From Ahrensia sp. (GTDB lineage: Bacteria > Pseudomonadota > Alphaproteobacteria > Rhizobiales > Rhizobiaceae), in assembly GCA_002706335.1 (NCBI GenBank), contig PAKZ01000024.1:124001-188000 (forward strand): a DNA stretch of 64,000 bases. The letters are read 5' to 3'. The translations under genes were made by a program, and so were the position numbers. The notes beneath the pieces were generated by a model, which made no database searches, was not told the origin of the DNA, and worked only from the letters and a program-made list of their open reading frames with translations. Each line of letters opens with the position of its first letter. Position 1 is the stretch's first letter. Shown here piece by piece: positions 16,594-41,106 of the stretch.

Positions 16594-16669
16594 GCCCTTG
16601 TAGCTCAGTTGGTAGAGCATCTGATTTGTAATCAGAGGGTCGGGAGTTCGAGTCTCTCCGGGGGCACCA
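16594..16669 (+). tRNA. tRNA-Thr (anticodon TGT)
   Basis: A 76-nt cloverleaf including an encoded CCA end. Acceptor stem GCCCTTG pairs with CGGGGGC (two G-T pairs), the D-arm includes AGCTCAGTTGGTAGAGC, the anticodon arm CTGATTTGTAATCAG exposes TGT, and the T-arm has GGGAGTTCGAGTCTCTC. The 3' half from 16623 is the left attachment site of the genomic island: 48 bp are repeated exactly at 41059-41106, so the gene is left intact by integration. Confidence 0.98.
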
Positions 16670-16670
16670 T
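16623..16670 (+). repeat. attL: 48-bp direct repeat in the tRNA-Thr 3' end
   Basis: The last 47 bases of tRNA-Thr plus one base (from GATTTGTAATCAG to GGGGCACCAT). Identical to 41059-41106 in the same orientation; flanking sequence differs on both sides. It is the left edge of the island and abuts the integrase gene. Confidence 0.95.
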
Positions 16671-16723
16671 ATTTTTCAATATGTTACGCCAATTGCGTTC
16701 CACAAATTGCGCTAAAAATGCTA

Positions 16724-16742
16724 TCACACACCTCTCACACAC
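16724..16742. repeat. tandem TCACACAC motifs, candidate integrase arm sites
   Basis: Two copies of TCACACAC spaced 11 bp start to start (16724-16731, 16735-16742) between attL and the integrase start. Related CACACAC motifs occur just inside attR (40981-40987 and ~40995-41001). Paired short direct repeats about one helical turn apart on both sides of the core are typical of tyrosine-integrase arm-type binding sites. Confidence 0.45.
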
Positions 16743-16756
16743 TGTGCGGGGTGGAT

Positions 16757-17944
16757 ATGGCGTCTCACAAAATCCTGGGCGGAAAAGTCCGAATCTATCG
16801 CAGACCGGAGAGTTCGGTCTGGCAATGCGCCACGTATCTTGAGGGAAAGGAGCGGCGCGTCAGCACGAAAACCGACAGCCTTTCCACAGCAAAGGACTTC
16901 GCCGAGGACTGGTACTTGGATCTGCGCGGCAAAAAGGCGGCAGGGCTGCTCAAGGTGGAAAAGACCTTCAGGGATGCCGCGAAGCTTTTTGAACGGGAGT
17001 ACCTGATCAACACGGCGGGTGAACGCAATCCGCGATACGTGCAGGATCACTTTGCGCGCTTGCGCAATTACCTTCTGCCGTTTTTCGGCGATACGCCCGT
17101 CCGGGAAGTCACGTCCGGCCTTGTCCAGAACTACCGGACGATGCGCAGCGCGGCGGAAGATGGTGGCAAGAAACCTAGCCGGAGCACGCTGCACCACGAG
17201 ACCGTGACAATCCGGCAGGTCATGAAGGTTGCGCTTCGGCACGGTTGGATTGACCATCTGCCGGATTTTTCCATGCCTTATCGTTCCTCTACGAAAATCA
17301 CCCATCGGGCGTGGTTCTCACCAGAAGAATACCGACAGCTCTATACCGCCACACGTGAGCGGGTGAAGCAGGCACAGGGGCAATCGCGCCAGTGGGCGGT
17401 GGAGCAGTTGCACGACTACATCCTTTTCATGGCGAACACTGGCCTGCGTCCGGATGAGGCCAATAGGCTGGAATACCGAGACGTTGCCTTCGATGAGGAT
17501 GAGGATAGCGGCGAACGCATCCTCCTCATCGATGTTCGGGGGAAGCGCGGTGTGGGGTATTGCAAGAGCACCAGCGGCGCGGTGCACCCGTTTGAGCGCC
17601 TCATCAAAAGAAATAGGCCAAAGCCCACCGATCTTGTGTTTCCTGCCGATCACAAGAAGCAGTTTCACCGTATTTTGGTCGAGACCGGCCTGAAAACAGA
17701 TCGTCAGGGCAACCGCCGGTCGTCTTACAGCCTGCGGCATACCTACATCTGCCTGCGACTGATGGAAGGCGCGGACATCTACCAGATCGCCAAGAATTGC
17801 CGCACAAGCGTGGAAATGATCGAGAAGTACTACGCCGCTCACATCTCCAACAGCATCAGCGCTGCCGCAATCAACGTGAGGCGTCCTGTCAGGTCAAAGA
17901 GCCACTCGCCGACATATGACGAGATGAACGCGCATCGGGGTTGA
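16757..17944 (+). CDS. tyrosine site-specific integrase (tRNA-Thr island)
   Basis: Catalyses integration and excision of the island at the tRNA-Thr 3' end. 395 aa: an N-terminal arm/core-binding region (residues 1-150) and a C-terminal catalytic domain with the first catalytic Arg in 'NTGLRPDEANRL', the second box 'SYSLRHTYICLRLMEG' (Arg-His; the usual box I His-x-x-Arg is Ser-x-x-Arg here) and the nucleophile Tyr in 'IEKYYAAH'. The ATG at 16757 (MASHKILGG) is 87 bp from attL; an upstream ATG at 16718 overlaps the arm repeats and is less likely. Confidence 0.93.
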   Translation: MASHKILGGKVRIYRRPESSVWQCATYLEGKERRVSTKTDSLSTAKDFAEDWYLDLRGKKAAGLLKVEKTFRDAAKLFEREYLINTAGERNPRYVQDHFARLRNYLLPFFGDTPVREVTSGLVQNYRTMRSAAEDGGKKPSRSTLHHETVTIRQVMKVALRHGWIDHLPDFSMPYRSSTKITHRAWFSPEEYRQLYTATRERVKQAQGQSRQWAVEQLHDYILFMANTGLRPDEANRLEYRDVAFDEDEDSGERILLIDVRGKRGVGYCKSTSGAVHPFERLIKRNRPKPTDLVFPADHKKQFHRILVETGLKTDRQGNRRSSYSLRHTYICLRLMEGADIYQIAKNCRTSVEMIEKYYAAHISNSISAAAINVRRPVRSKSHSPTYDEMNAHRG

Positions 17945-19992: not shown

Positions 19993-20469
19993 TCAGTCGC
20001 CATTTTCAAGGCGCTGAAGCCCGGCGGTGACACCGTCCAGCGAAAGCTCATTCTCGATTTTACTGCCGCTGCCATCCACGTAGCTGATCCGTAATGTGAC
20101 CCCTCGCTTCCAGCGCGCCAGGCGATTGGCGTCGAGTGGCACTGCCGAAAAGCAGCCTCCGATGTTGCAGGTCGCAAAGACAGCGCGTTCCTCCGGGCCC
20201 TGATCGACGCGCATAAGAATGCCACCGGGCAGGCTGATCCCCAAAGGCGTGACGATAAGCGCGAACAGCCCCTTGTCTCTTCTCACGATGTTGATCTTCA
20301 CAGCGGTACGGTTGTCCGCAGAGGACGCGGCCTGAGCAAGTGAGCAGCGGTCAGCTTCGCACCCATATTGCCATGCGCCGATGTCTTCGGCCATGACCTG
20401 TGTGGTCGCCAGAATTATTGACGCAAACATGCCTATACAGGCAGATGAAGGGTTGATTCCTGAAGCCAT
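19993..20469 (-). CDS. IalB-family (invasion-associated locus B) exported protein
   Basis: 158 aa with an N-terminal signal peptide ('GMFASIILATTQVMA') followed by an IalB-like domain: 'DIGAWQYGCE', paired cysteines, 'LGISLPGGILMRVD' and 'FATCNIGGCFS', all typical of the family first named in Bartonella. IalB proteins are small periplasmic/outer-membrane proteins of uncertain role. It is transcribed away from the TpsB gene; only ~50 bp separate the two starts. The start could also be the internal ATG at 20430. Confidence 0.85.
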   Translation of the reverse strand: MASGINPSSACIGMFASIILATTQVMAEDIGAWQYGCEADRCSLAQAASSADNRTAVKINIVRRDKGLFALIVTPLGISLPGGILMRVDQGPEERAVFATCNIGGCFSAVPLDANRLARWKRGVTLRISYVDGSGSKIENELSLDGVTAGLQRLENGD

Positions 20470-20518
20470 TATCGTTTTGTTAACTCGTTGCTTAATGGCT
20501 TTCCATGGGGTTTGGGGA

Positions 20519-22192
20519 ATGCGGCCGTTTATTGCCGCCTGTGCGGGTGGTCTTTGTCTTTTTTCGGCCTCATCGGCATTGGGTCAAACCGTACCTTCTC
20601 CTGAAAGCGGCAGCCATATTGCGGATCGGTTTGAAACCGAACAACCGGCAACTGTTCAGCCGCCTTCTGCCTCTCTTCAGCTTGAATCGACTAATCCGCC
20701 CGCATCGGCCGATCAGATCAAATTGACCGTCAATCGGTTCGTTTTCTCGGGTAATTCTGTCTATGGGAGTGACGAACTGGAAGCGCTAGCGAAAGGCGTT
20801 TCGGGCGAGACAAATCTTCAGACGGTCTATGAACTTGCCGCCGCAATTACCGGGAAATACAGCGAAGACGGATACATCCTGACCCGTGCGATCGTGCCGC
20901 CTCAGGAACTTGATCCCAATGGCGCTGTCGTGCGCATCGAGATCATCGAAGGCTATATCGATGAGGTTGTCTGGCCCGCCGAGGTGGCGGCTTTCGAGGA
21001 TGTCTTTTCCACCTACTCGGCGCGGATAACCGCATCGCGACCGCTCAATATCGCCGTCCTGGAGCGCTATCTCCTTCTGGCGAACGACTTGCCCGGCCTC
21101 TCCTTCGAAACGACGCTGGAACCATCAGAACAAAATGCCGGTGCCGCCAGGCTGATTGTCAGTTCAAGTTACAAGGCGACGGGGTTTTCGGCCTCCGTCG
21201 ATAACAAGGGCACCGAGGGGCGCGGGCCTTACCAGCTGTCGGCGTCGGGTACGGCCAGCAATCTGCTGAAGCATCAAGAACGCTTCAGCGCGAGATGGGC
21301 AGGATCGGCCGAGTTTGAAGAACTCCAGTACGCCGAAATTCGCGCGGAAAAGGTTCTCAATGCCGAAGGGCTGACCGCCGGGGTTCAGTTTTCTTACGAC
21401 ACTGGCGAACCTGGCACGGAAGCGCTGCGAACCCTGGAATTCGGCAGTGAGAGCATCAGCCTCTCGGCTGATCTCACTTATCCGCTGATCAGAAGCCGTT
21501 CGCACAATCTGTGGCTGACCGGCACTGTTTTCGCTCGTGCGTACCGTTCTGATGCCTTGGGCGCGGCCTTCAACGAGGATCGGCTCAGAGGGATTCGTCT
21601 GGGTTTTCGGTACGATCAGTTTGATCGCTTCAACGGCATTTCCCGACTTGAAGCGACTTACAGCCAGGGCATTGAAGGCTTGGGCAGCACGAAAAACGAA
21701 AATCCGCTTGCTTCCCGCTCGAACGGGCGCGTTGACTTCACCAAGATCGAGCTGTCCGGCAGCCGATCCCAACCTCTTAGCGACGGTTGGTCTGCATTTG
21801 GCCGCATCGACGGCCAGATTTCAGGGACGCCCCTTCTCTCGTCGGAAGAGTGTACCTATGGCGGCAGCGCGTTTGGTCGCGCTTTCGATCCGTCCGTCCT
21901 TTCTGGCGACCACTGCGTGAAGCTGCTTGGCGAGCTTCGTTACAATGTGGACTGGACCGATCTTGGGCTCTCGCAATCCCAAGTTTACGCCTTCTCTGAT
22001 TATGGCAGGGTCTGGCGCATGGCCCCCGGCGTCGGAACGCCCGCAGCAGACGATGCATCGAGTGTGGGGGCTGGCCTGAGACTGGCCTGGGGAGAGCATC
22101 TATCCGGCGATATCGAAATCGGGCACAAACTGTCCGGCCCGGCAAGCGTCGATGCCTGGCGGTTCGGCTTCAGTCTCACGGCGCGGCATTAG
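20519..22192 (+). CDS. two-partner secretion outer-membrane transporter TpsB (ShlB/FhaC family)
   Basis: Exports the adjacent TpsA protein across the outer membrane. From the chosen ATG (20519) it is 557 aa: signal peptide (MRPFIAACAGGLCLFSASSALG), a short Pro/Ser/Gln-rich linker, a POTRA module (about 65-150, 'VNRFVFSGNSVYGSDELEAL...ILTRAIVPPQ'), a second POTRA, and a 16-strand barrel of alternating residues ending in 'WRFGFSLTARH' with aromatic/His end as in TpsB proteins. In-frame starts further upstream (20381, 20495) lack the signal-peptide context. 11 bp before tpsA. Confidence 0.92.
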   Translation: MRPFIAACAGGLCLFSASSALGQTVPSPESGSHIADRFETEQPATVQPPSASLQLESTNPPASADQIKLTVNRFVFSGNSVYGSDELEALAKGVSGETNLQTVYELAAAITGKYSEDGYILTRAIVPPQELDPNGAVVRIEIIEGYIDEVVWPAEVAAFEDVFSTYSARITASRPLNIAVLERYLLLANDLPGLSFETTLEPSEQNAGAARLIVSSSYKATGFSASVDNKGTEGRGPYQLSASGTASNLLKHQERFSARWAGSAEFEELQYAEIRAEKVLNAEGLTAGVQFSYDTGEPGTEALRTLEFGSESISLSADLTYPLIRSRSHNLWLTGTVFARAYRSDALGAAFNEDRLRGIRLGFRYDQFDRFNGISRLEATYSQGIEGLGSTKNENPLASRSNGRVDFTKIELSGSRSQPLSDGWSAFGRIDGQISGTPLLSSEECTYGGSAFGRAFDPSVLSGDHCVKLLGELRYNVDWTDLGLSQSQVYAFSDYGRVWRMAPGVGTPAADDASSVGAGLRLAWGEHLSGDIEIGHKLSGPASVDAWRFGFSLTARH

Positions 22193-22203
22193 AGGAAGCA
22201 GAG

Positions 22204-24981
22204 ATGATCATTCGACATAAAGCTCTGCTGGCGACAACCGCCCTGGCGACTGTCTTGTCTTCTGTCGCGCTGGCCGAGGGGCCGGGCGGTGAAATCATCG
22301 CCGCAGGTGAAGCCAGCGTGTCACGCCCGGATGATCACAGCACTGTTGTGAACCAGAGGTCCGCCAAAGCAATCATCGACTGGCGCGACTTCAGCATTTC
22401 TGCGGATCACAACGTCGAGTTCGTTCAGCCCGATATGGAATCTGTCATCCTAAATCGCGTCTATGGAGGCGAGCCGTCGAAGATCTACGGCGGCATGAGC
22501 GCAAACGGAACCGTCATGCTCGTCAATCCGGACGGCATTCTGTTTGGCGCGGGCAGCACGATTGATGTCGGCGGCCTCGTTGCCACAACCAGTGACATCG
22601 CCAATGCCGAATTCATGTCGGGCAACTACGAATTCAGCAAGCCCGGCAATCCGTCCGCATCCGTCATCAATGAAGGTTTGATCACGGCTCGCGAGGGCGG
22701 CATTACTGCGCTTGTTGCGCCGGGCGTGCGCAACAGCGGCATTGTGTCTGCGCGCCTTGGCACGGTGGCAGCCGCATCTGCAAACGAGTTCACGCTCGAT
22801 CTCTACGGCGACAGCCTGGTGAAGCTGAAGATTGATGACGAAATCGCCGATGAGGTCATCGATCTGGCGACCGGGCAAACCATGAGCGCTTTGGTCGACA
22901 ATCAGGGCACTTTAAGCGCGAACGGCGGAACTGTCGCGCTTACCGCGACTTCGGCAAGACGCATCGTGGATCACGTCATCAACAATGACGGTGTCATCGA
23001 AGCCAATAGCGTCGGTGTGAAGGCCGGTAAGATTGTCTTGGGCACTCAAACCGCTTCTTCGAAGGCTGTAGACGCGCCGGATCAGCGTGCCCGGGTATCG
23101 GGGACACTTTCAGCGCAAGGGCGCGATACCGGCGAGGTGGGTGGCGATATTGCAATTGTTGGTGAGATCATCGGCCTGACGGGAGCTGATATGAATGCCA
23201 ATGGCTCGGCCGGGGGCGGGACTGTGCTTGTCGGGGGCGATGTTCAGGGTGGAAATGCCGATCCTGAAATGCTGGCGCGCTATGGCCTTTCCCTTGAAGA
23301 GCAAGGTCTTGAAACAGCAACTGCTGTCACCGTCGATGAAAACAGCACAATCAATGCGTCCGCGACCAGGGCGGGAGATGGCGGCAAGGTTGTCGTATGG
23401 GCGGATAATACCACTCGTTTCGCCGGCGAAATCCAAGCTCAGGGTGGCAGCGAGACCGGCGATGGTGGGTTTGTGGAAGTCTCAGGTAGAAACCGTATTG
23501 ATATCGCTTCTGTGCAAATTAGCGCCGCAGCACCGCACGGATCGGGGGGGACGGTATTATTCGATCCAGATTATCTCATAATTTATCATTATGATGAAAT
23601 CCTGGAACCGCTCTCATTCCCAAATAATGTAGCGCGTCCCCATCTCTACAGCTTCATCTCTGACGCTGACGTATCTGCAATCCTGTCTGGCGGTTCAAAC
23701 GTAATTCTCGATGGAATTGCCGGGATAGAGCAGTACTCAAGAATTGTGAATACCTTCAACTCCCTTGAGGCCGGGATCCTTCATCTGACGGGCTCTGAGT
23801 TCACCACTACAGACCTTATCGATCGTCAGCTTTCACCTTACTTTCTTAGCGTTCAATCTCTTGGGCAACCTTTGGACGTTCAGGTCGATATACCGGCTGT
23901 CCAAACAGTCATGGATCTCACGCAGTCCGGTGTCGAAGAGATCGTTTCACACACTGTCTCTTCCCGTCTGGTTATCAACGAGATGAATGTAACTGGGGGA
24001 AGCCTGGCGTTTACCGCGCCCAATATCGCTATTGTACCTCAGAACGGCGCAACCAGCGCAGTTTACGAGTTTGGTTCAGCCGATTTGATTTTCACCTTGA
24101 ACAAAGGTGATGCAACGCCGGACGAGGATCAAACGGCGCCGGGACGAGACTTCGCAATATCCCAAAACGCGCTCCTAAGCGGTACCGGAGAGTTGTCGAT
24201 ACGCGGCGGCGGCCAATCAGTTGCTGTGGAATATAACGGTAGCTTCGCGGACTTCGATCGGGTGAATATTCTCGGAGGGAGTGTGACGTACGGAAATGAT
24301 CGCTCCACCGCGAATGAAATTTTCATTCAAAGCGACGTCTTTGAATTTGTTAACGGCGGGCCGCTCTATGGCACGCTTAATCCAGATCCCGTACCTAATC
24401 CGTCGGGCTGCCCCACTTGCAGCATGGTAGTGAACGGGACGGTGATCTACGGTGAAGTTGTTGAGCCGCCGACTGAGCCCGAACCACCATTACCCGATCC
24501 ACCTTTGCCTGATACTCCTACCGGCGGGGATGGCCCGATAGAAGAAGACATCATCACGATTTCGATGGAGTTGAGGCCCTATCAGTTTCAGGTCCTCAAC
24601 TTCGGAGAGCGCTCAGACAGGAGTCTTGACGGTGATTGGTACGACAAAATCGAGTCATCGAGCCACGGCAGAACTGACCGTGCTACTCAAGTGTCCCAAA
24701 ATATGGTGTCTCTAACTGGAATAGAAGGGCTTCCAAAAATATTTCAATGGGTTAAGCTCGGTAAATATAAAGAATTAATAGCTTATAAGTTTTTTGCTGA
24801 ATTGGATTTAGCTGGTGCATTGCTGAATCACACCGGCGAATTTGTAAAAGAATCTGGAAACAATACTCAAAATCCGTTAATGTCAGTTTCTATTGCCGCC
24901 GATATTAAGCAACGCAGCGAGGGCAGCTACGCCTATGAGCGCGCTGTCGGAAGATTTTATAGATGGGAAACGCTTGAGTGA
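22204..24981 (+). CDS. two-partner secretion exoprotein TpsA (filamentous haemagglutinin family)
   Basis: 925 aa: signal peptide (MIIRHKALLATTALATVLSSVALA), then the TPS domain (about 25-270) with 'NPDGILFGAGSTIDVGGLVATTSDI'-type NPNG/L-like motifs, then beta-helix repeats, a Pro-rich spacer ('PEPPLPDPPLPDTP', about 760-775) and a distinct 130-residue C-terminal region of different character and lower GC. Probably an adhesin; the short length and C-terminal module also allow a toxin-like effector. Overlaps the next gene by 4 bp, so the two are likely translated together. Confidence 0.88.
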   Translation: MIIRHKALLATTALATVLSSVALAEGPGGEIIAAGEASVSRPDDHSTVVNQRSAKAIIDWRDFSISADHNVEFVQPDMESVILNRVYGGEPSKIYGGMSANGTVMLVNPDGILFGAGSTIDVGGLVATTSDIANAEFMSGNYEFSKPGNPSASVINEGLITAREGGITALVAPGVRNSGIVSARLGTVAAASANEFTLDLYGDSLVKLKIDDEIADEVIDLATGQTMSALVDNQGTLSANGGTVALTATSARRIVDHVINNDGVIEANSVGVKAGKIVLGTQTASSKAVDAPDQRARVSGTLSAQGRDTGEVGGDIAIVGEIIGLTGADMNANGSAGGGTVLVGGDVQGGNADPEMLARYGLSLEEQGLETATAVTVDENSTINASATRAGDGGKVVVWADNTTRFAGEIQAQGGSETGDGGFVEVSGRNRIDIASVQISAAAPHGSGGTVLFDPDYLIIYHYDEILEPLSFPNNVARPHLYSFISDADVSAILSGGSNVILDGIAGIEQYSRIVNTFNSLEAGILHLTGSEFTTTDLIDRQLSPYFLSVQSLGQPLDVQVDIPAVQTVMDLTQSGVEEIVSHTVSSRLVINEMNVTGGSLAFTAPNIAIVPQNGATSAVYEFGSADLIFTLNKGDATPDEDQTAPGRDFAISQNALLSGTGELSIRGGGQSVAVEYNGSFADFDRVNILGGSVTYGNDRSTANEIFIQSDVFEFVNGGPLYGTLNPDPVPNPSGCPTCSMVVNGTVIYGEVVEPPTEPEPPLPDPPLPDTPTGGDGPIEEDIITISMELRPYQFQVLNFGERSDRSLDGDWYDKIESSSHGRTDRATQVSQNMVSLTGIEGLPKIFQWVKLGKYKELIAYKFFAELDLAGALLNHTGEFVKESGNNTQNPLMSVSIAADIKQRSEGSYAYERAVGRFYRWETLE

Positions 24982-25562
24982 AATTACCAATAATAATTTT
25001 TTCTATTTCGTTATTTATATTCCCTGCATTTGCTGCAGAGAAGAATGATGTAGTGTTGAATAGTTGCTTGATGGTTTTGGAAGTAGATATAGTTGAACGG
25101 GCCGCGCAAAGCAGTAGCTCAACTGAATGGTTAAAGCGAGTGTCGAAGGAGCAAAGCCTCGAACGATTTAAGGATGTTTTCCTTGACGCATGTGGTCGTG
25201 AGTATGAGCCCGCCAAAAATATCCTCGCGTCTGGCAATTACGATAAGCAGCTACTCGAAAGAAGTCTGGCTGTGAAGAATGAGAGAATATATACGATGCT
25301 GTCAGCTATCCAGGCGTTGAGGGATAGCGAAGAAATGACAGAGGATGAGATTCGTAATTTCATTGAGGAGTATACGGCCTTTTCCTATCAATATATTCTT
25401 GGTAAAAAATCTTGGGAGGATTTGCTGAATTCTTACATTTCTGGAAATTATCTTCTTTATATTGAGGTTGCGCCCACTTTCGGCGGAATTTATTATAAGC
25501 GCGACCCTTCCGATCTCCGCGTTCACAGTAATTTTCAACTGAAGTCTCTGAGTTCGCTCTGA
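24978..25562 (+). CDS. small exported protein downstream of TpsA (unknown)
   Basis: 194 aa starting with GTG that overlaps the tpsA stop (GTGA). It has a clear signal peptide (MKLPIIIFSISLFIFPAFAAEK) and a helical, acidic mature part with three cysteines; no recognisable domain. Low GC like the end of tpsA, unlike tpsB. The gene coupling suggests a partner of the TpsA C-terminal region (assembly factor, anchor, or immunity-type protein); function not established. Confidence 0.7.
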   Translation: MKLPIIIFSISLFIFPAFAAEKNDVVLNSCLMVLEVDIVERAAQSSSSTEWLKRVSKEQSLERFKDVFLDACGREYEPAKNILASGNYDKQLLERSLAVKNERIYTMLSAIQALRDSEEMTEDEIRNFIEEYTAFSYQYILGKKSWEDLLNSYISGNYLLYIEVAPTFGGIYYKRDPSDLRVHSNFQLKSLSSL

Positions 25563-32815: not shown

Positions 32816-33246
32816 TTCGCCTGAACGCGACTGAGAAACTCGCCGCGGCGGCGGCTCATTCGTTTTCACCAGGTGAAGGTCAATTGCCCTTCGGGGATTA
32901 ATGCAGGCCTTCGGACGGCGTAAAGGCGGCCCTTCGGCCCCCGCTTCGCGGGCTTCGGCCTTGACTCCGACCGCGCGGCCCGCTCTTGGCTTTGGAAGGG
33001 CAAATGGATCATTGGCGGCATAGGTGCCGCATAGGACGGTCCAGTCGCTTAGTGGCTCTTGGAATTGATGATTTGACTACTTTTAGGGTCTAGATGCGCT
33101 TCCATTAGAAAAGGATGCGACTCGTCTAGTGAGTCCTTCCGAATATCATAATAGCCTTCCAAAATAGAAATTTGACATCCTCTCTTGTTCTCCGACATCA
33201 TGGGCAGGGGTATGCAGGACTTTCTTATTGCGAGGGGAGAAGCTCC
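32816..33246. other. 430-bp intergenic region before the exported 907-aa gene
   Basis: The first part (32870-33000) is very GC-rich with repeated CTTCGG/CCGAAG words, giving many possible hairpins; AATTGCCCTTC (32881) and GAAGGGCAAAT (32996) form an inverted pair. The second part is AT-rich (33060-33200) and may carry the promoter of the next operon. A 49-codon frame on the minus strand (33049-33198) has no ribosome site and is not called. Confidence 0.45.
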
Positions 33247-35970
33247 GTGAGGCCGGTACCAGCACTGATATTTGCTTTTCCATTCCTGGTTTGCGCGCTT
33301 GGAGACGCCCATGCCGATTCCATAGCACCGGCTGAGGCGGTAAAGATCTCAACGCGTCTCGGTGGGTCTGTAGCGAAGGCGTACCTGAGGCATGAATCGA
33401 TCACGATTCCACCTTCGCAACTCACGCCTGAGCAGCGCAGCGCGGAAATTGAGAGAGCGCTTGCCCGGTACCAGCTCACTAAGAATTTCTATAGCGGCGC
33501 TTCGACCGGAACCAAAATGGCAAAGGCCGTTGTTGGTGCAGGCTTCGCACTGGGAACGATTTACACCGGCGGAGCCTTGCCGCTCGTTCTGCTCGCCGCG
33601 GGGTCGTCAGCAAGCCTGGAAATGACAGACCTTTGGATCGAGGAACGTGGAAAAGAGAATTCTGGGCACCTTTTAGCAGCACTTTCTGCCGATCTGATGG
33701 CCGAGACGGGAGTCGCGTCAGCTCAAGAACTTCTTTCTGACCCCGGTCGTATTGGGCGCGTTATTCGCGAGAGAGATCAATTTCTCAGGGATATCAAGGC
33801 CAGGGCAAATGCGTCAGGCGACGATGCGCTTCTAGACGTGGCCGTCGGTGCCCTTGAGGCGTTTGCTGCAAACGTTGATGCTACCGAGTTTGAGTTGCTC
33901 GTCCAGACCGCCGGCACGGTCGCAGATCAGGATCGGCGGTTCACTGATTTCGTGGTCGAAGTGCGCGATAGCACGAAAAGAGTACAAGATCGTCTGCAGA
34001 CACAGGGGGAACTGATAGCGACAATCCAGACTGATGTAACTGCATTGCGGGAGCATGTGGTGGTCCTGGATCAAAAAATCGATACGCTAGGCGCAAATCA
34101 GGACCTCATCGCAGATTTCATGTTCTCGGGATTGAGCTCCGCAGAGAAAGCCGACGCACTCCGGTCGGGCCTGATGGACCGGCGAATTATCTGTCCCGAA
34201 GACAAGCCTGACTGCGATCCCAAAGATGTGAAGGCGGCTATGATCGAGCGTTTCGAAACGGACGCACGCATCAAGGAAAATGTTTTGCTGGCGGGGGATA
34301 TACTAAAGGGAATCAATGATGTTTCCGCCATTGCCTCAAACCTGGATATCGATATCGGGGAAGATGGACAGAAGGCATTGGAAGTCGCCGGTGCGGCTGT
34401 AAACGCCTACATTGGCTTTATGGCTGGAGACTATCTTGGCGCAGTAGCATCAATAACCGGAATTTTCGCAAAAAAGTCTGATCCGGATGCTGAGCGTTTC
34501 AAAATCATGATGAAATATCTGCAGGAGCAGTTCGAAATCGTCAATCAACAATTGGCGACAATTCAGGAAAACCAACAAAAAATATTTGATGCTATCGTCG
34601 CGCTCTCAGAGCAGCTCGAAACTATCTATGTGGAACTTGATGGCCGTCTCAACCGCATGGAGATTGAGCAGCGCAGAATATCAGACAATCTTAAACAGGT
34701 AATCTGGTCTCCTTGGCGGTCTTGTTTCTCGGTCTATGCATATGCTCTCCAAAATGGATACGTTTCACCGGAAACCCTCCGCTTCCAGAATTTTGCCGCT
34801 ATCCGCAGGGTTGCCGATGCGCGCGCGCCACAAGCGCGGGAATGTATGAACGAGGTTACCGTTGCGCTCGACAGTATGACGTCGGTATCCGGGTTTAACA
34901 ATTTTCTGGATCTTTCAATTTCACTTGACCCAGTCAGTGTTGCTTCGGACGGAAGCCTAACGGCTGCCTTGGAGGAAGATGCGAACAAATGGCACGACTT
35001 TGACACGTTGTTTCGGAACAATGTTGCCAATCCTGCAACGCGCATTGTGGAAGACTGGGCCGCTCGAAACAACCTTTCCGAAGAAGCGCGTTTTTATTTG
35101 CTCGCTTCGGACATTTACGCGGTGAGTGAGCTTGAGCAGATCATGTCGCTCATCGCGGATGGCGCCATTGAACCGAACTGTGCAGCAGAAGATGGACGGT
35201 ATCAAAACATTCGCGGACTTGTCTGCCTGCCCGGCCAGAGCCCCGCAACGCTAGCAGCAAAGCACTCTCGCGCCGTACTTGCGACAGGCGTGTTGTTGGA
35301 TGTCTTGGACTGGATGAACGTGGTGGCCCAACTCGGGGATATCTATGACAAGGATCCAGAGAAATTTGCCGAGACGCTAGAAGCGGTAGCCGGGCTTCCG
35401 ACTTACAACGCGGGCAAAGAGATTATTGATCGCTTGATCGACGCGACCACGCTCGCGCTAGCCTCGCAATACCGCATCTACGGCCAAGTTACAGCCCTTG
35501 GTGCGGCTGAAGATATTGCTCAAGGGCGTGCGGGCCGAGATCATTTGTCGGTCCTTGGCAACAATCCGTACCTAGCGGAAAATGTGGCGACTGTTCTTTT
35601 GCATTTGAAACGAAATACCTGGGACCTTGAGGACGGCATTACCGGGCCTCGCTTCGAGGACAGGTATACCCAGGCCTTGCTCTATGCCCGAGGAGAGACC
35701 TCCACTCGTTTCGAGCCGCTTTATGCGCTCTTCGGGCGAGACCATGCATTTGGCCTCGATAAAGAAGGGATCCCATCGCTGGAGCTGTCGGTCGATGGCC
35801 AGATTGCGAATTTACGACTGCCCGCGCCCAAGCAATTGGTTGAAGGCCGCTTCCTATATCCGCCGCGAGTCTATGCGCTCCGAGCGCGCAAGGATGGTCT
35901 AGTTGATCGTAGGCTGGACTATGAGTTCGGTGCTGAAAAGAATCTTGCGCTTAGCATTCTGGAGAATTGA
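33247..35970 (+). CDS. exported 907-aa helical protein with two hydrophobic helices and coiled coils (unknown)
   Basis: No family recognised. From GTG 33247 (GGGGAGA upstream) it has a signal peptide (MRPVPALIFAFPFLVCALGDAHA). The mature protein is almost wholly helical: hydrophobic, glycine-rich segment 1 at ~91-125 ('AVVGAGFALGTIYTGGALPL'), a coiled coil at ~237-293, hydrophobic segment 2 at ~376-410 ('AGAAVNAYIGFMAGDYLGAV'), a second coiled coil at ~416-485, then a ~420-residue helical C-terminal domain. Alternating amphipathic coiled coils and internal hydrophobic hairpins recall alpha-helical pore-forming toxins or surface scaffolds; this is inference. It is translationally close to a PASTA protein (3-bp gap). 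Confidence 0.75.
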   Translation: MRPVPALIFAFPFLVCALGDAHADSIAPAEAVKISTRLGGSVAKAYLRHESITIPPSQLTPEQRSAEIERALARYQLTKNFYSGASTGTKMAKAVVGAGFALGTIYTGGALPLVLLAAGSSASLEMTDLWIEERGKENSGHLLAALSADLMAETGVASAQELLSDPGRIGRVIRERDQFLRDIKARANASGDDALLDVAVGALEAFAANVDATEFELLVQTAGTVADQDRRFTDFVVEVRDSTKRVQDRLQTQGELIATIQTDVTALREHVVVLDQKIDTLGANQDLIADFMFSGLSSAEKADALRSGLMDRRIICPEDKPDCDPKDVKAAMIERFETDARIKENVLLAGDILKGINDVSAIASNLDIDIGEDGQKALEVAGAAVNAYIGFMAGDYLGAVASITGIFAKKSDPDAERFKIMMKYLQEQFEIVNQQLATIQENQQKIFDAIVALSEQLETIYVELDGRLNRMEIEQRRISDNLKQVIWSPWRSCFSVYAYALQNGYVSPETLRFQNFAAIRRVADARAPQARECMNEVTVALDSMTSVSGFNNFLDLSISLDPVSVASDGSLTAALEEDANKWHDFDTLFRNNVANPATRIVEDWAARNNLSEEARFYLLASDIYAVSELEQIMSLIADGAIEPNCAAEDGRYQNIRGLVCLPGQSPATLAAKHSRAVLATGVLLDVLDWMNVVAQLGDIYDKDPEKFAETLEAVAGLPTYNAGKEIIDRLIDATTLALASQYRIYGQVTALGAAEDIAQGRAGRDHLSVLGNNPYLAENVATVLLHLKRNTWDLEDGITGPRFEDRYTQALLYARGETSTRFEPLYALFGRDHAFGLDKEGIPSLELSVDGQIANLRLPAPKQLVEGRFLYPPRVYALRARKDGLVDRRLDYEFGAEKNLALSILEN

Positions 35971-35972
35971 CG

Positions 35973-36698
35973 ATGTTAAAACGTTTGCTCCTTTTCGTCG
36001 TAATCTTGGCGGCAGGACCCGCGATCGCGGATCCTGCTCCTGATTTGCGTGGAAAAACTCTGGAAGAAATCAACACGGAGTTTAGCAATGCGGAATTCTC
36101 CCTCGTGGTTCAGCAGGTGGAAGCTGTTGAACCGCTTGGTCGTGTGTTCCTCCAAATTCCTTCACCGGGAGCCGATATGGGCGAACAAGGCGCAGTTTAC
36201 GTTCGTGTTTCACAAGGTCTCATGATCCCCGTCGGAATCACCGGACGAAAGGTGGAAACTGTCACAGACGAGCTAGAAGCGCAGGGATTTACAGTTGAGC
36301 AAACGGTTACGCAGGTGCTTGGCGTACCAAAGGGTACTGTCGCCGCTTCAATCCCGCCAGAAGAAACATACGTCGATGCTACGAAGGAAGTGGTTTACTT
36401 GCAGGTCTCTGGTGATCCGGGTGTGGCTGTTCCAAATCTGGTGGGGTTGCGCATTAGACAAGCCGAGGACACTTTGAGTGCCCTTGGGCTTCGCGGCAAA
36501 TTGCTGACTGATATTGACGTCCGCCCCATTGGCAGTACGTGCTCAGGCTTCACCTACTACACCGTGGAAATCACGTCTTCAGAGCCTCCGGCTGGAGCAT
36601 ATTTGCCAAAGGCGGGAGAGGTGCGGATGGAGGGGACGCGTATAGTCTCGTCGACTCTCCCAGCCGAACCTTGTACGGCTGATGGTACGCCTTTGTAG
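35973..36698 (+). CDS. exported PASTA-repeat protein
   Basis: 241 aa. Signal peptide (MLKRLLLFVVILAAGPAIA), then three PASTA-like repeats of ~65-70 residues: 'APDLRGKTLEEINTEF', 'PVGITGRKVETVTDELEAQGF' and 'VPNLVGLRIRQAEDTLSALGL' as the repeat starts. PASTA domains bind muropeptides or act as spacers and are usual in Gram-positive kinases and PBPs; a free-standing exported Gram-negative protein is uncommon. ATG 35973 has GGAG 8 bp upstream. Immediately follows the 907-aa gene, so the two probably work together in the periplasm or outside the cell. Confidence 0.8.
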   Translation: MLKRLLLFVVILAAGPAIADPAPDLRGKTLEEINTEFSNAEFSLVVQQVEAVEPLGRVFLQIPSPGADMGEQGAVYVRVSQGLMIPVGITGRKVETVTDELEAQGFTVEQTVTQVLGVPKGTVAASIPPEETYVDATKEVVYLQVSGDPGVAVPNLVGLRIRQAEDTLSALGLRGKLLTDIDVRPIGSTCSGFTYYTVEITSSEPPAGAYLPKAGEVRMEGTRIVSSTLPAEPCTADGTPL

Positions 36699-39142: not shown

Positions 39143-40894
39143 TTATTTCTGAGGTTTGGTCTTCACCTGGGTTCGCTTCTTGCCCAGATATTTCGAGGCC
39201 TGATTGCGTTCCCAGCTTTCTTCCATGGTCGGAAAGGGGTTTAGCGCAGCGAGGCGAACTACGCGCTCCAGCGTCCTTATCAGAGGTCGGTTAGTGGGCG
39301 CCTTGTGGCTGGCGGTGTCAAAAATCATATCAACCAGTTGCAAGGCGAGGTCGATCTTGTTGAGACCGGCATTCGTTCGTGTGTTGTAAAGAGTTGAAAG
39401 CTCCGCACCTGGGTTTTTCGCTTTCTTGCACGCCGCCACTTCGTCAGTCTTGAAAACAACGCCATGCGCTAGCGTTGTCATGGCTTTTGCGATTTCGGTC
39501 GCTGAAAAATTGTCGAACTCAAACGACGTGCGCCAGATCTTGATGTATTCGGGGCGCGTCGCATGGCGGCTGGCGTGAAGCGTTGATGCTAAGCCCTTGG
39601 CTGCTTCCTTCAATTTCCGTGCGTTGTTCTCGTCGTCGAGGATCAGAAACGTAAACGTTTGATGGTGATGCAGGTAATCGACCAAACGCAATATGGCGCG
39701 AAAGCGATCTTCTTTTCGGCCGCCGGTGGCTGTGTCAACGCCGCATAAATCCACGATCTCAATCTGATGTGTACCTGGGGGTGCGCCGAAATAATGTTCG
39801 AAGATTGCTCTAATCGCGGCTTCTTCGCTGGCTCCTTCTACAAAAAGCGTGAGCTTAGGGGCGGGATTCAAATCGAACCGATTGACCACAAACTCCATAT
39901 GCCTGCGGGCGTCAGCGCGAACTGCAAGTTCCGGCACATGAGTTATCACTGTCGAGCTCACTTCGTTGGGATGCGAAAGCTCTTTGCCATATAGGTCTTG
40001 GTACAATAGGCGCAGCATGAATGCGCCGCTTCGAATGGTCTCTGCGGCAAGTGCCTTGTGCTTCAGCCGATCTCGCTCGCGAGGCGAAATAAATTGCAAC
40101 AGCTGGTACCAGCGCTCCAGTGGATCGAGTTGACACTGTTGAAAGGCGAGGGTTTCAAATGCGTGCTTCAGCTTCTCAGGGGTGAGTTTAAATACCCGCT
40201 TCGTGCGGCTCGGGTCCCACGCTTGCGCATAATCTCCCCAATTCCAGGCAACCCCATTGATGGTCATCCATTGGTCGGAAGAAAATCCGCCATCGGAAAC
40301 GATTCTCGTGCGCTGGTTGCTTCGTGTATGCGGGAAATAGCGATCCGAGATAAATTGACACAGCAGGTCGATGGCGGGCCGGAACTCCTTTCCAGTCCCT
40401 CCTTGTTGAATAAGAAGACCCCCGAATTTTTCGAATTCTGCGCCGCGGGCGAGCCACGCCTCCTTGTTCAATCCGTCATCATCGAGAAAGCTGTCAAGGC
40501 TGACTGACGCTGTAAATTGGTCAACCGTGAAGATTAGGGAGGCGATTTGAAATCGTGAGTAATAGGCTTCGCTATCTTGGCTGTTCTTCTTCGGTATGGC
40601 GTGAGGCTGGCCTTGCGTGGTGTCCGTCGCGTATCCTTGCGTAAACCATCGATTGGTTGTGAGTGGCAGCTCCAATGGCTTTCTTGCGTTTGAACTGTAC
40701 ACTCGAAACAGAGGGGAAAAGATACCCAGCCGTTCAAATCGTAAAAGTCGAGCTGCGTCGATGGAAATGCCTCGTGCTTTGGCGAATTTGATAAACTCCG
40801 CCGAGCGAAGCGGGCGGCAGAGGTGAACGCCGCCATGTCTTAAGAGGAGGCGCGCAGCATTAGGAGGTATCGCCAGAAGCTCGGATTTTTCCAT
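39143..40894 (-). CDS. stand-alone TOPRIM-domain protein (583 aa, putative defence)
   Basis: N-terminal ~340 residues have no recognisable motif. Then a TOPRIM domain: 'LTLFVEGASEEAAIRAIF' (acidic E in VEGxSEE, ~353) and 'FTFLILDDENNARKL' (DDE, ~419-421), followed by a helical C-terminus with a basic tail (KYLGKKRTQVKTKPQK). TOPRIM proteins of the OLD-like/DNA-nuclease type are common phage-defence nucleases; unlike OLD there is no ABC ATPase domain in this protein. AT-rich compared with surroundings and located just inside attR. Confidence 0.75.
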   Translation of the reverse strand: MEKSELLAIPPNAARLLLRHGGVHLCRPLRSAEFIKFAKARGISIDAARLLRFERLGIFSPLFRVYSSNARKPLELPLTTNRWFTQGYATDTTQGQPHAIPKKNSQDSEAYYSRFQIASLIFTVDQFTASVSLDSFLDDDGLNKEAWLARGAEFEKFGGLLIQQGGTGKEFRPAIDLLCQFISDRYFPHTRSNQRTRIVSDGGFSSDQWMTINGVAWNWGDYAQAWDPSRTKRVFKLTPEKLKHAFETLAFQQCQLDPLERWYQLLQFISPRERDRLKHKALAAETIRSGAFMLRLLYQDLYGKELSHPNEVSSTVITHVPELAVRADARRHMEFVVNRFDLNPAPKLTLFVEGASEEAAIRAIFEHYFGAPPGTHQIEIVDLCGVDTATGGRKEDRFRAILRLVDYLHHHQTFTFLILDDENNARKLKEAAKGLASTLHASRHATRPEYIKIWRTSFEFDNFSATEIAKAMTTLAHGVVFKTDEVAACKKAKNPGAELSTLYNTRTNAGLNKIDLALQLVDMIFDTASHKAPTNRPLIRTLERVVRLAALNPFPTMEESWERNQASKYLGKKRTQVKTKPQK

Positions 40895-41058: not shown

Positions 41059-41106
41059 GATTTGTAATCAGAGGGTCGGGAGTTCGAGTCTCTCCGGGGG
41101 CACCAT
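41059..41106 (+). repeat. attR: 48-bp copy of the tRNA-Thr 3' end
   Basis: Identical to 16623-16670 and in the same orientation; the sequence before it (CTGTCC...) does not continue as tRNA. Right boundary of the island. Confidence 0.95.

What the first reader, a model, noticed from the sequence alone, without database searches (positions are those of the whole stretch)
33247..36698. Coupled exported pair: 907-aa coiled-coil/hydrophobic-helix protein and a PASTA protein
The large protein has a signal peptide, two internal hydrophobic helices each followed by long coiled coils, and no recognisable family; the partner is a free-standing exported PASTA-repeat protein, unusual in Gram-negatives. 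The pair sits between a restriction cluster and an integrase, so it is island cargo. The large protein's layout resembles alpha-helical pore formers, and a muropeptide-binding partner would anchor or trigger it at the cell wall. This could be an undescribed defence, antagonism or cell-envelope system.
Basis: partly seen in the sequence, partly recalled or inferred. Interest (0 to 1): 0.85.

Follow-up and report, generated by a model that had tools for sequence, protein, structure and literature searches.

The report
Mobile exported protein pair, function unknown
Two neighbouring bacterial genes, one for a large exported helical protein of no known family and one for a small exported protein that probably grips the cell wall, travel together on mobile DNA in a few related bacteria; they look like an undescribed cell-envelope module whose job is not yet known.

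Summary
The pair is real (33247-36698): a 907-aa exported, mostly helical protein ("BIG") and, 2 nt behind it, an exported protein with three PASTA repeats. BIG has no match near a cut-off in Pfam, NCBIfam or PADLOC, only weak rows in PHROGs, and no credible match among solved structures. The pair is cargo of a 24.4-kb island bounded by a 48-bp repeat of the tRNA-Thr 3' end; five genus-mates carry that tRNA without island DNA behind it. In 297 family genomes, own included, BIG occurs in 6 and this PASTA protein in 5, each time beside BIG, in either gene order, although BIG is only 42-47% and PASTA 29-30% identical. BIG relatives sit in four contexts, three apparently mobile. One relative (26% identical) lacks PASTA and has two paralogous exported coiled-coil genes instead. 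The pore-former idea fits a hydrophobic stretch and conserved cysteines but is unproved: both fold predictions failed (pLDDT 41 and 45). Best reading: a mobile two-gene envelope module, perhaps a wall-tethered, membrane-inserting conflict effector (0.3); a static envelope scaffold is as likely.

The parts
33247..35970 (+). BIG: 907-aa exported, mostly helical protein of no known family (GTG start)
   Evidence: homologues
33247..33315 (+). signal peptide of BIG (residues 1-23, AHA|D)
   Evidence: read from the translation; not scored by a signal-peptide program
33526..33618 (+). charge-free hydrophobic stretch 1 (residues 94-124), candidate membrane segment or hairpin
33880..34086 (+). long helix, residues 212-280; coiled-coil periodicity at 230-271
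   Evidence: (low-confidence model)
34372..34473 (+). weaker glycine-rich hydrophobic stretch 2 (residues about 376-409)
34489..34752 (+). second long helix, residues 415-502 of a low-confidence model; coiled coil not significant in my test
34705..35967 (+). C-terminal part, residues 487-907, mostly helical with a small beta element near the end
   Evidence: only residues 271-380 of that model (block means 54-87) are not poor
35973..36698 (+). exported protein with three PASTA repeats (ATG start; alternative TTG 35967)
33172..33201 (+). promoter-like TTGACA-18-CATCAT, 45 nt upstream of the BIG start (weak: 2 sites found in the region, 2.2 expected)
16623..16670 (+). left island end: 3' end of tRNA-Thr, 48-bp direct repeat
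41059..41106 (+). right island end: second copy of the 48-bp repeat
16718..17944 (+). tyrosine-integrase-like gene beside the tRNA, probably the island's integrase
   Evidence: PF00589 E=7.4e-6 but 26.3 bits, just under the cut-off of 27.1

Best explanation
BIG and the PASTA protein are a two-gene module of the cell envelope carried by mobile elements. Shown: the two genes form an operon-like unit, both products begin with a signal peptide, and they occur together in either gene order. Inferred: both act in the periplasm; the PASTA repeats hold the complex on, or read the state of, peptidoglycan; BIG is a disulphide-stabilised helical protein whose hydrophobic segments insert into the inner membrane when the wall or envelope is disturbed, for instance by phage entry, a rival or a competing element, so that the cell is depolarised or the invader blocked. 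It would be a conflict system that senses attack outside the cytoplasm.
Confidence: 0.3

Rival explanations
1. Envelope scaffold or tether: BIG is anchored in the inner membrane by its first hydrophobic segment, reaches through the periplasm with its long helices, and the PASTA protein clamps it to peptidoglycan. It would stabilise or remodel the envelope (stress, metal or surface adaptation) and never form a pore.
For: Long helices in the model (low confidence); three PASTA repeats look like a wall-binding array (muropeptide recognition by PASTA as reviewed in PMC6448482, passages seen); a heavy-metal ATPase and metal-resistance-like genes on one host island.
Against: Rare and patchy (6 of 297 family genomes) and repeatedly on mobile elements, which is unusual for housekeeping scaffolds; beside conflict genes in two of four contexts.
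Confidence: 0.3
2. Competition or exclusion between mobile elements or cells: BIG is an entry-exclusion or killing factor displayed in the envelope, and the small partner (PASTA, or the two coiled-coil proteins in F. pelagi) is its adaptor or immunity protein.
For: The partner gene differs between lineages (PASTA in the window, L002 and L013-L016; two paralogous exported coiled-coil proteins in L017); on mobile or accessory DNA in at least three of four contexts.
Against: No secretion machinery recognised beside the pair in the loci read by eye; PASTA repeats are not a known immunity fold (recalled); no toxin-domain match.
Confidence: 0.15
3. BIG and PASTA are surface or adhesion factors that belong with the two-partner secretion pair at 20381-24981.
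For: Same island; ShlB and TPS Pfam matches.
Against: About 8 kb and a restriction cluster lie between; BIG has no TPS domain; no two-partner genes recognised by eye near the relatives (first 70 residues of each frame only).
Confidence: 0.05
4. The two genes are only neighbours, without joint function.
For: The F. pelagi relative lacks PASTA; a free-standing exported PASTA protein without BIG in the 17 kb read exists in another family genome (L065).
Against: 5 of 5 hits of the PASTA-subfamily profile are adjacent to BIG, in both gene orders.
Confidence: 0.07

Closest known systems
PASTA domain proteins (Pfam PF03793), notably PASTA Ser/Thr kinases PknB/PrkC/Stk
   Same: three PASTA repeats, exported; nearest solved relatives are PknB PASTA arrays
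   Different: no kinase domain, no membrane anchor besides the signal peptide, a separate gene in a Gram-negative, coupled to an unrelated helical protein
ClyA/YaxAB/Hbl-type alpha pore-forming toxins
   Same: helix-rich, long helices, hydrophobic segments that could insert (traits as described in PMC9558359, passages seen)
   Different: no sequence match in the rows shown; 907 aa against roughly 300-400 aa (recalled); a PASTA partner rather than a second toxin subunit; fold not determined
PD-T4-6 kinase defence (PADLOC)
   Same: PADLOC's PD-T4-6 models match the PASTA part of the small protein
   Different: the better match covers model positions 344-520 of 547 only; no kinase, so not a member
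SLATT-type two-helix pore effectors of bacterial conflict systems (PMC7159879, passages seen)
   Same: idea of a small membrane-inserting effector in a conflict operon
   Different: predicted there to respond to a nucleotide signal; BIG is exported, far larger and gave no SLATT match in Pfam

Membership tests
PASTA (PF03793) | match above Pfam's gathering score | tested here: met
   63.4 bits against 23.2, three stretches
PASTA Ser/Thr kinase (NF033483, PD-T4-6) | kinase domain joined to PASTA repeats | tested here: not met
   56.3 bits against 450, model positions 358-526 only; no kinase domain in Pfam
alpha pore-forming toxins (ClyA/HBL/XaxA type) | sequence match to a pore-former family | tested here: not met
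   window BIG: none among its 6 Pfam rows at E up to 1; five relatives: none among the 25 of 33 rows shown; profile against PDB: none among 12 rows at E up to 10
alpha pore-forming toxins (ClyA/HBL/XaxA type) | shared fold | tested here: inconclusive
   models at pLDDT 41 and 45; only the C-terminal model was searched, scattered low Z
alpha pore-forming toxins (ClyA/HBL/XaxA type) | pore formation in membranes | not testable with these tools
   needs liposome or conductance assays
known anti-phage defence systems (PADLOC 2023) | match of the large protein to a PADLOC model | tested here: not met
   0 families at E up to 0.01
integrative island in tRNA-Thr | tRNA end duplicated at the far end, and the tRNA site without the island in relatives | tested here: met
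   48-bp repeat; 5 of 5 genus-mates have the tRNA with no island match in the about 1.5 kb held behind it
integrative island in tRNA-Thr | integrase gene beside the tRNA | tested here: inconclusive
   16718-17944: PF00589 E=7.4e-6, 26.3 bits, just under the cut-off of 27.1

The most novel reading that the evidence does not exclude
A mobile-element-borne immune module that works entirely outside the cytoplasm: a wall-bound PASTA protein senses peptidoglycan damage made by an entering phage or rival and releases a partner helical protein that perforates the inner membrane, with exchangeable sensor genes (PASTA in one lineage, paired coiled-coil proteins in another).
Probability: 0.15. Interest if true: 0.9.

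Novelty: new variant of a known kind. Interest (0 to 1): 0.55.

Why it matters
Most defence systems that I know of sense invaders inside the cell (recalled). A mobile module made only of exported proteins, with a probable wall-binding partner, would let one test directly whether bacteria guard their peptidoglycan against entry. Even if it proves to be a scaffold, it is an undescribed protein family with good evidence of a co-inherited partner, and the different partner genes in F. pelagi offer a natural comparison.

Tried and rejected
Fold prediction of BIG (3 rows) and of its C-terminal part (3 rows) gave unusable models; structure searches with the C-terminal model gave only scattered weak rows, which I do not interpret and which exclude no family. 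The full-length model was not searched.

Internal duplication of the two hydrophobic/helix halves: profile comparison of the segments gave probabilities of 0.6% and 0.5%; no support.

Wider search for BIG (samples overlap): order, 397 genomes, 5 with rows, of which 2 real (window, G217) and 3 weak; class, 385 genomes, only the window; phylum, 299 genomes, 3 with rows, 2 real and 1 weak. The frames behind all four weak rows were read by eye: two ammonium-transporter-like proteins with a kinase-like end, a topoisomerase-III-like protein, and a short coiled-coil protein; none resembles BIG outside the matched stretch.

Plasmids, phages (L014 BIG only) and viral contigs: no match. Weak rows to DUF1664, a PHROGs 'hemolysin' (E=1.5e-4, L002 only, 58 residues) and the like lie in the long helices and are treated as coiled-coil noise. 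A search for genes of the F. pelagi partner type was made with one of the two proteins in plasmids only.

Literature: eight searches about such a pair showed no paper on it in what they listed (one search listed 15 of 583, 8 of 9); one search asked about the Aurantimonas island and listed two papers that I did not open. Passages only were read of PMC7159879, PMC6448482 and PMC9558359.

Full report
What is there. ORF 33247-35970 (+) codes for a 907-aa protein (BIG) and 35973-36698 (+) for a 241-aa PASTA protein (the 243-aa form starts at TTG 35967). The BIG start has GAGGGGAG 7 nt upstream; the PASTA ATG lies 2 nt after the BIG stop and 8 nt after GGAG. Both begin with a signal peptide (AHA|D and AIA|D, by eye). 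The PASTA protein scores 63.4 bits for PF03793 (cut-off 23.2) with three stretches; its nearest solved relatives are PknB PASTA arrays (profile of 3 relatives, E=5.4e-11).

BIG belongs to no curated family that I could find. Pfam, NCBIfam and PADLOC give nothing near a cut-off (for five relatives 25 of 33 weak Pfam rows were shown); PHROGs gives single weak rows in the helical stretches; a profile of 5 relatives finds no PDB chain better than E=0.089. It is predicted to be mostly helix, at low confidence (mean pLDDT 41; C-terminal part alone 45, where only residues 271-380 of that model have block means of 54-87).

Anatomy that stands without a fold. (a) A charge-free stretch at residues 94-124 is the longest of the window's mature protein (31 residues, shuffle P=0.03); it is 35 residues in L002 and in the near-identical L003/L004, but 19 in L006, whose longest run (32) is the second segment. 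(b) The second, glycine-rich stretch near 376-409 is well conserved in sequence but weaker in hydropathy. (c) Heptad periodicity exceeds the null at 230-271 only. (d) Cysteines 316, 323, 493, 533 and 660 are in 5 of 5 aligned rows and 645 in 4 of 5 (L003 and L004 are near-identical, so four distinct proteins), as expected of a protein that folds with disulphides outside the cytoplasm (inference).

Relatives. In 297 genomes of the family, own included, BIG is found in 6: the window, G217 (47% identity), G137, G192 and G256 (44%) and G022 (27% by that search, 26% in the alignment). Contig lengths and titles identify G137, G192, G256 and G022 with records of Aurantimonas manganoxydans, Jiella sp., Aurantimonas coralicida and Fulvimarina pelagi; a Fulvimarina MAG carries the same block. 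L013, L015 and L016 are 99.87-99.92% identical to L014 over 22.7 kb; G137 and G192 share 74 kb at 99.8%, starting beside an integrase-like gene (Arm-DNA-bind_3 25.8 bits, cut-off 27) and running to the end of the Jiella contig. I count these as one element. In G256/L016 the BIG gene is split into frames of 288 and 638 aa. Sampled more widely, no further relative appeared: order 397, class 385, phylum 299 genomes; within the genera of G217, G137 and G022 it is in 1 of 119, 2 of 8 and 1 of 3 genomes, all already known. A scan of 84,980 species genomes by two short conserved patterns found 5 loci; it did not return G217, so it is not exhaustive. Plasmid, phage and viral collections gave none.

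Linkage. The profile of this PASTA subfamily matches 5 of 297 family genomes, in each case beside BIG. The gene order is BIG-PASTA in the window and PASTA-BIG in L002 and L013-L016. For distinct elements (3 PASTA among 4 BIG, n taken as 294) the chance of such overlap is about 1e-6, a figure that ignores kinship. Results against: the F. pelagi locus has no PASTA gene, and its genome is not among the hits. With the general Pfam PASTA model, 5 of 180 family genomes match, 4 over the cut-off (9 of 14 control genomes ring): the window, G137 and three without BIG in what I read. These three are a penicillin-binding-protein end beside murE/murF-like genes on a 3.3-kb contig (possible contaminant), a protein beside phage-tail-like genes (over the cut-off when its full frame is scanned, 24.2 bits), and a free-standing exported PASTA protein. 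PASTA proteins are therefore rare in this family but not unique to the pair.

The F. pelagi variant. BIG follows a transposition module: TniB 49.8 bits (cut-off 22.4), TniQ 53.4 (27), Mu-transposase C-terminal 22.0 (21.7), rve 27.1 (below its cut-off of 32.6), so it is probably cargo of a Tn5053/Tn7-like transposon; I did not look for the transposon's ends. Between TniQ and BIG, in place of PASTA, are two small exported coiled-coil proteins, 33% identical to each other, one on each strand. Either the partner can be exchanged or this is a sister system.

G217. The pair lies on a chromosome between an OmpA-like and a GNAT gene, with a Mutator-family transposase fragment about 4 kb away; whether it is an island there was not tested.

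How it may work. Shown: signal peptides, co-occurrence, mobile DNA. From family knowledge: PASTA repeats bind peptidoglycan or muropeptides (reviewed in PMC6448482, passages). Inferred: BIG sits at the inner membrane through its first hydrophobic stretch. Two readings are level: a triggered, membrane-inserting conflict effector (0.3) and a static envelope tether (0.3). Recurrence on mobile DNA and the nearness of restriction genes and DarTG lean to conflict, but neighbourhood evidence is indirect, and a heavy-metal ATPase shares one of the islands.

Verdict. A real, undescribed, rare mobile gene pair. Membership in the PASTA family is met for the small protein; membership of BIG in pore-former families is not met by sequence and is undecided by fold. 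I rate it a new variant (a PASTA-linked envelope module) rather than a new kind, because the new part, BIG, has no demonstrated function.

Noticed in passing
L017:8863-9291(+) and L017:9309-9785(-): Two paralogous small exported coiled-coil proteins (33% identity) lie between TniQ and the BIG relative of Fulvimarina pelagi, where PASTA is missing; possible replacement partners.
   Followed up: partly
window 39143-40894 (-): 583-aa protein with an OLD-like TOPRIM match just below Pfam's cut-off (22.5 against 23.2 bits) and no PADLOC match; possibly an undescribed defence gene.
   Followed up: no
window 20381-25562 (+): Two-partner secretion pair (ShlB, TPS) with a third, unmatched exported 194-aa gene overlapping the end of the TPS gene.
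   Followed up: partly
[not shown]
   Followed up: no
L013-L016 (22.7 kb; at least 74 kb in G137 and G192): Near-identical island with DarTG and a heavy-metal ATPase in Aurantimonas, Jiella and Fulvimarina genomes points to recent transfer between genera.
   Followed up: partly
L065:8553-9098 (+): Free-standing exported PASTA protein of 181 aa (39.8 bits) without a BIG relative in the 17 kb read.
   Followed up: partly
L066:7775-8785 (+): PASTA match (24.2 bits, cut-off 23.2) in a protein beside phage-tail-like, possibly contractile-injection genes (by eye).
   Followed up: no
L017:67-1911 (+): AAA plus M41-peptidase protein resembling IetA in PADLOC, upstream of the transposition genes.
   Followed up: no
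L016:9959-12738 (+): The BIG gene of Aurantimonas coralicida is split into two frames (288 and 638 aa), unlike its near-identical copies; inactivation or sequencing error.
   Followed up: no
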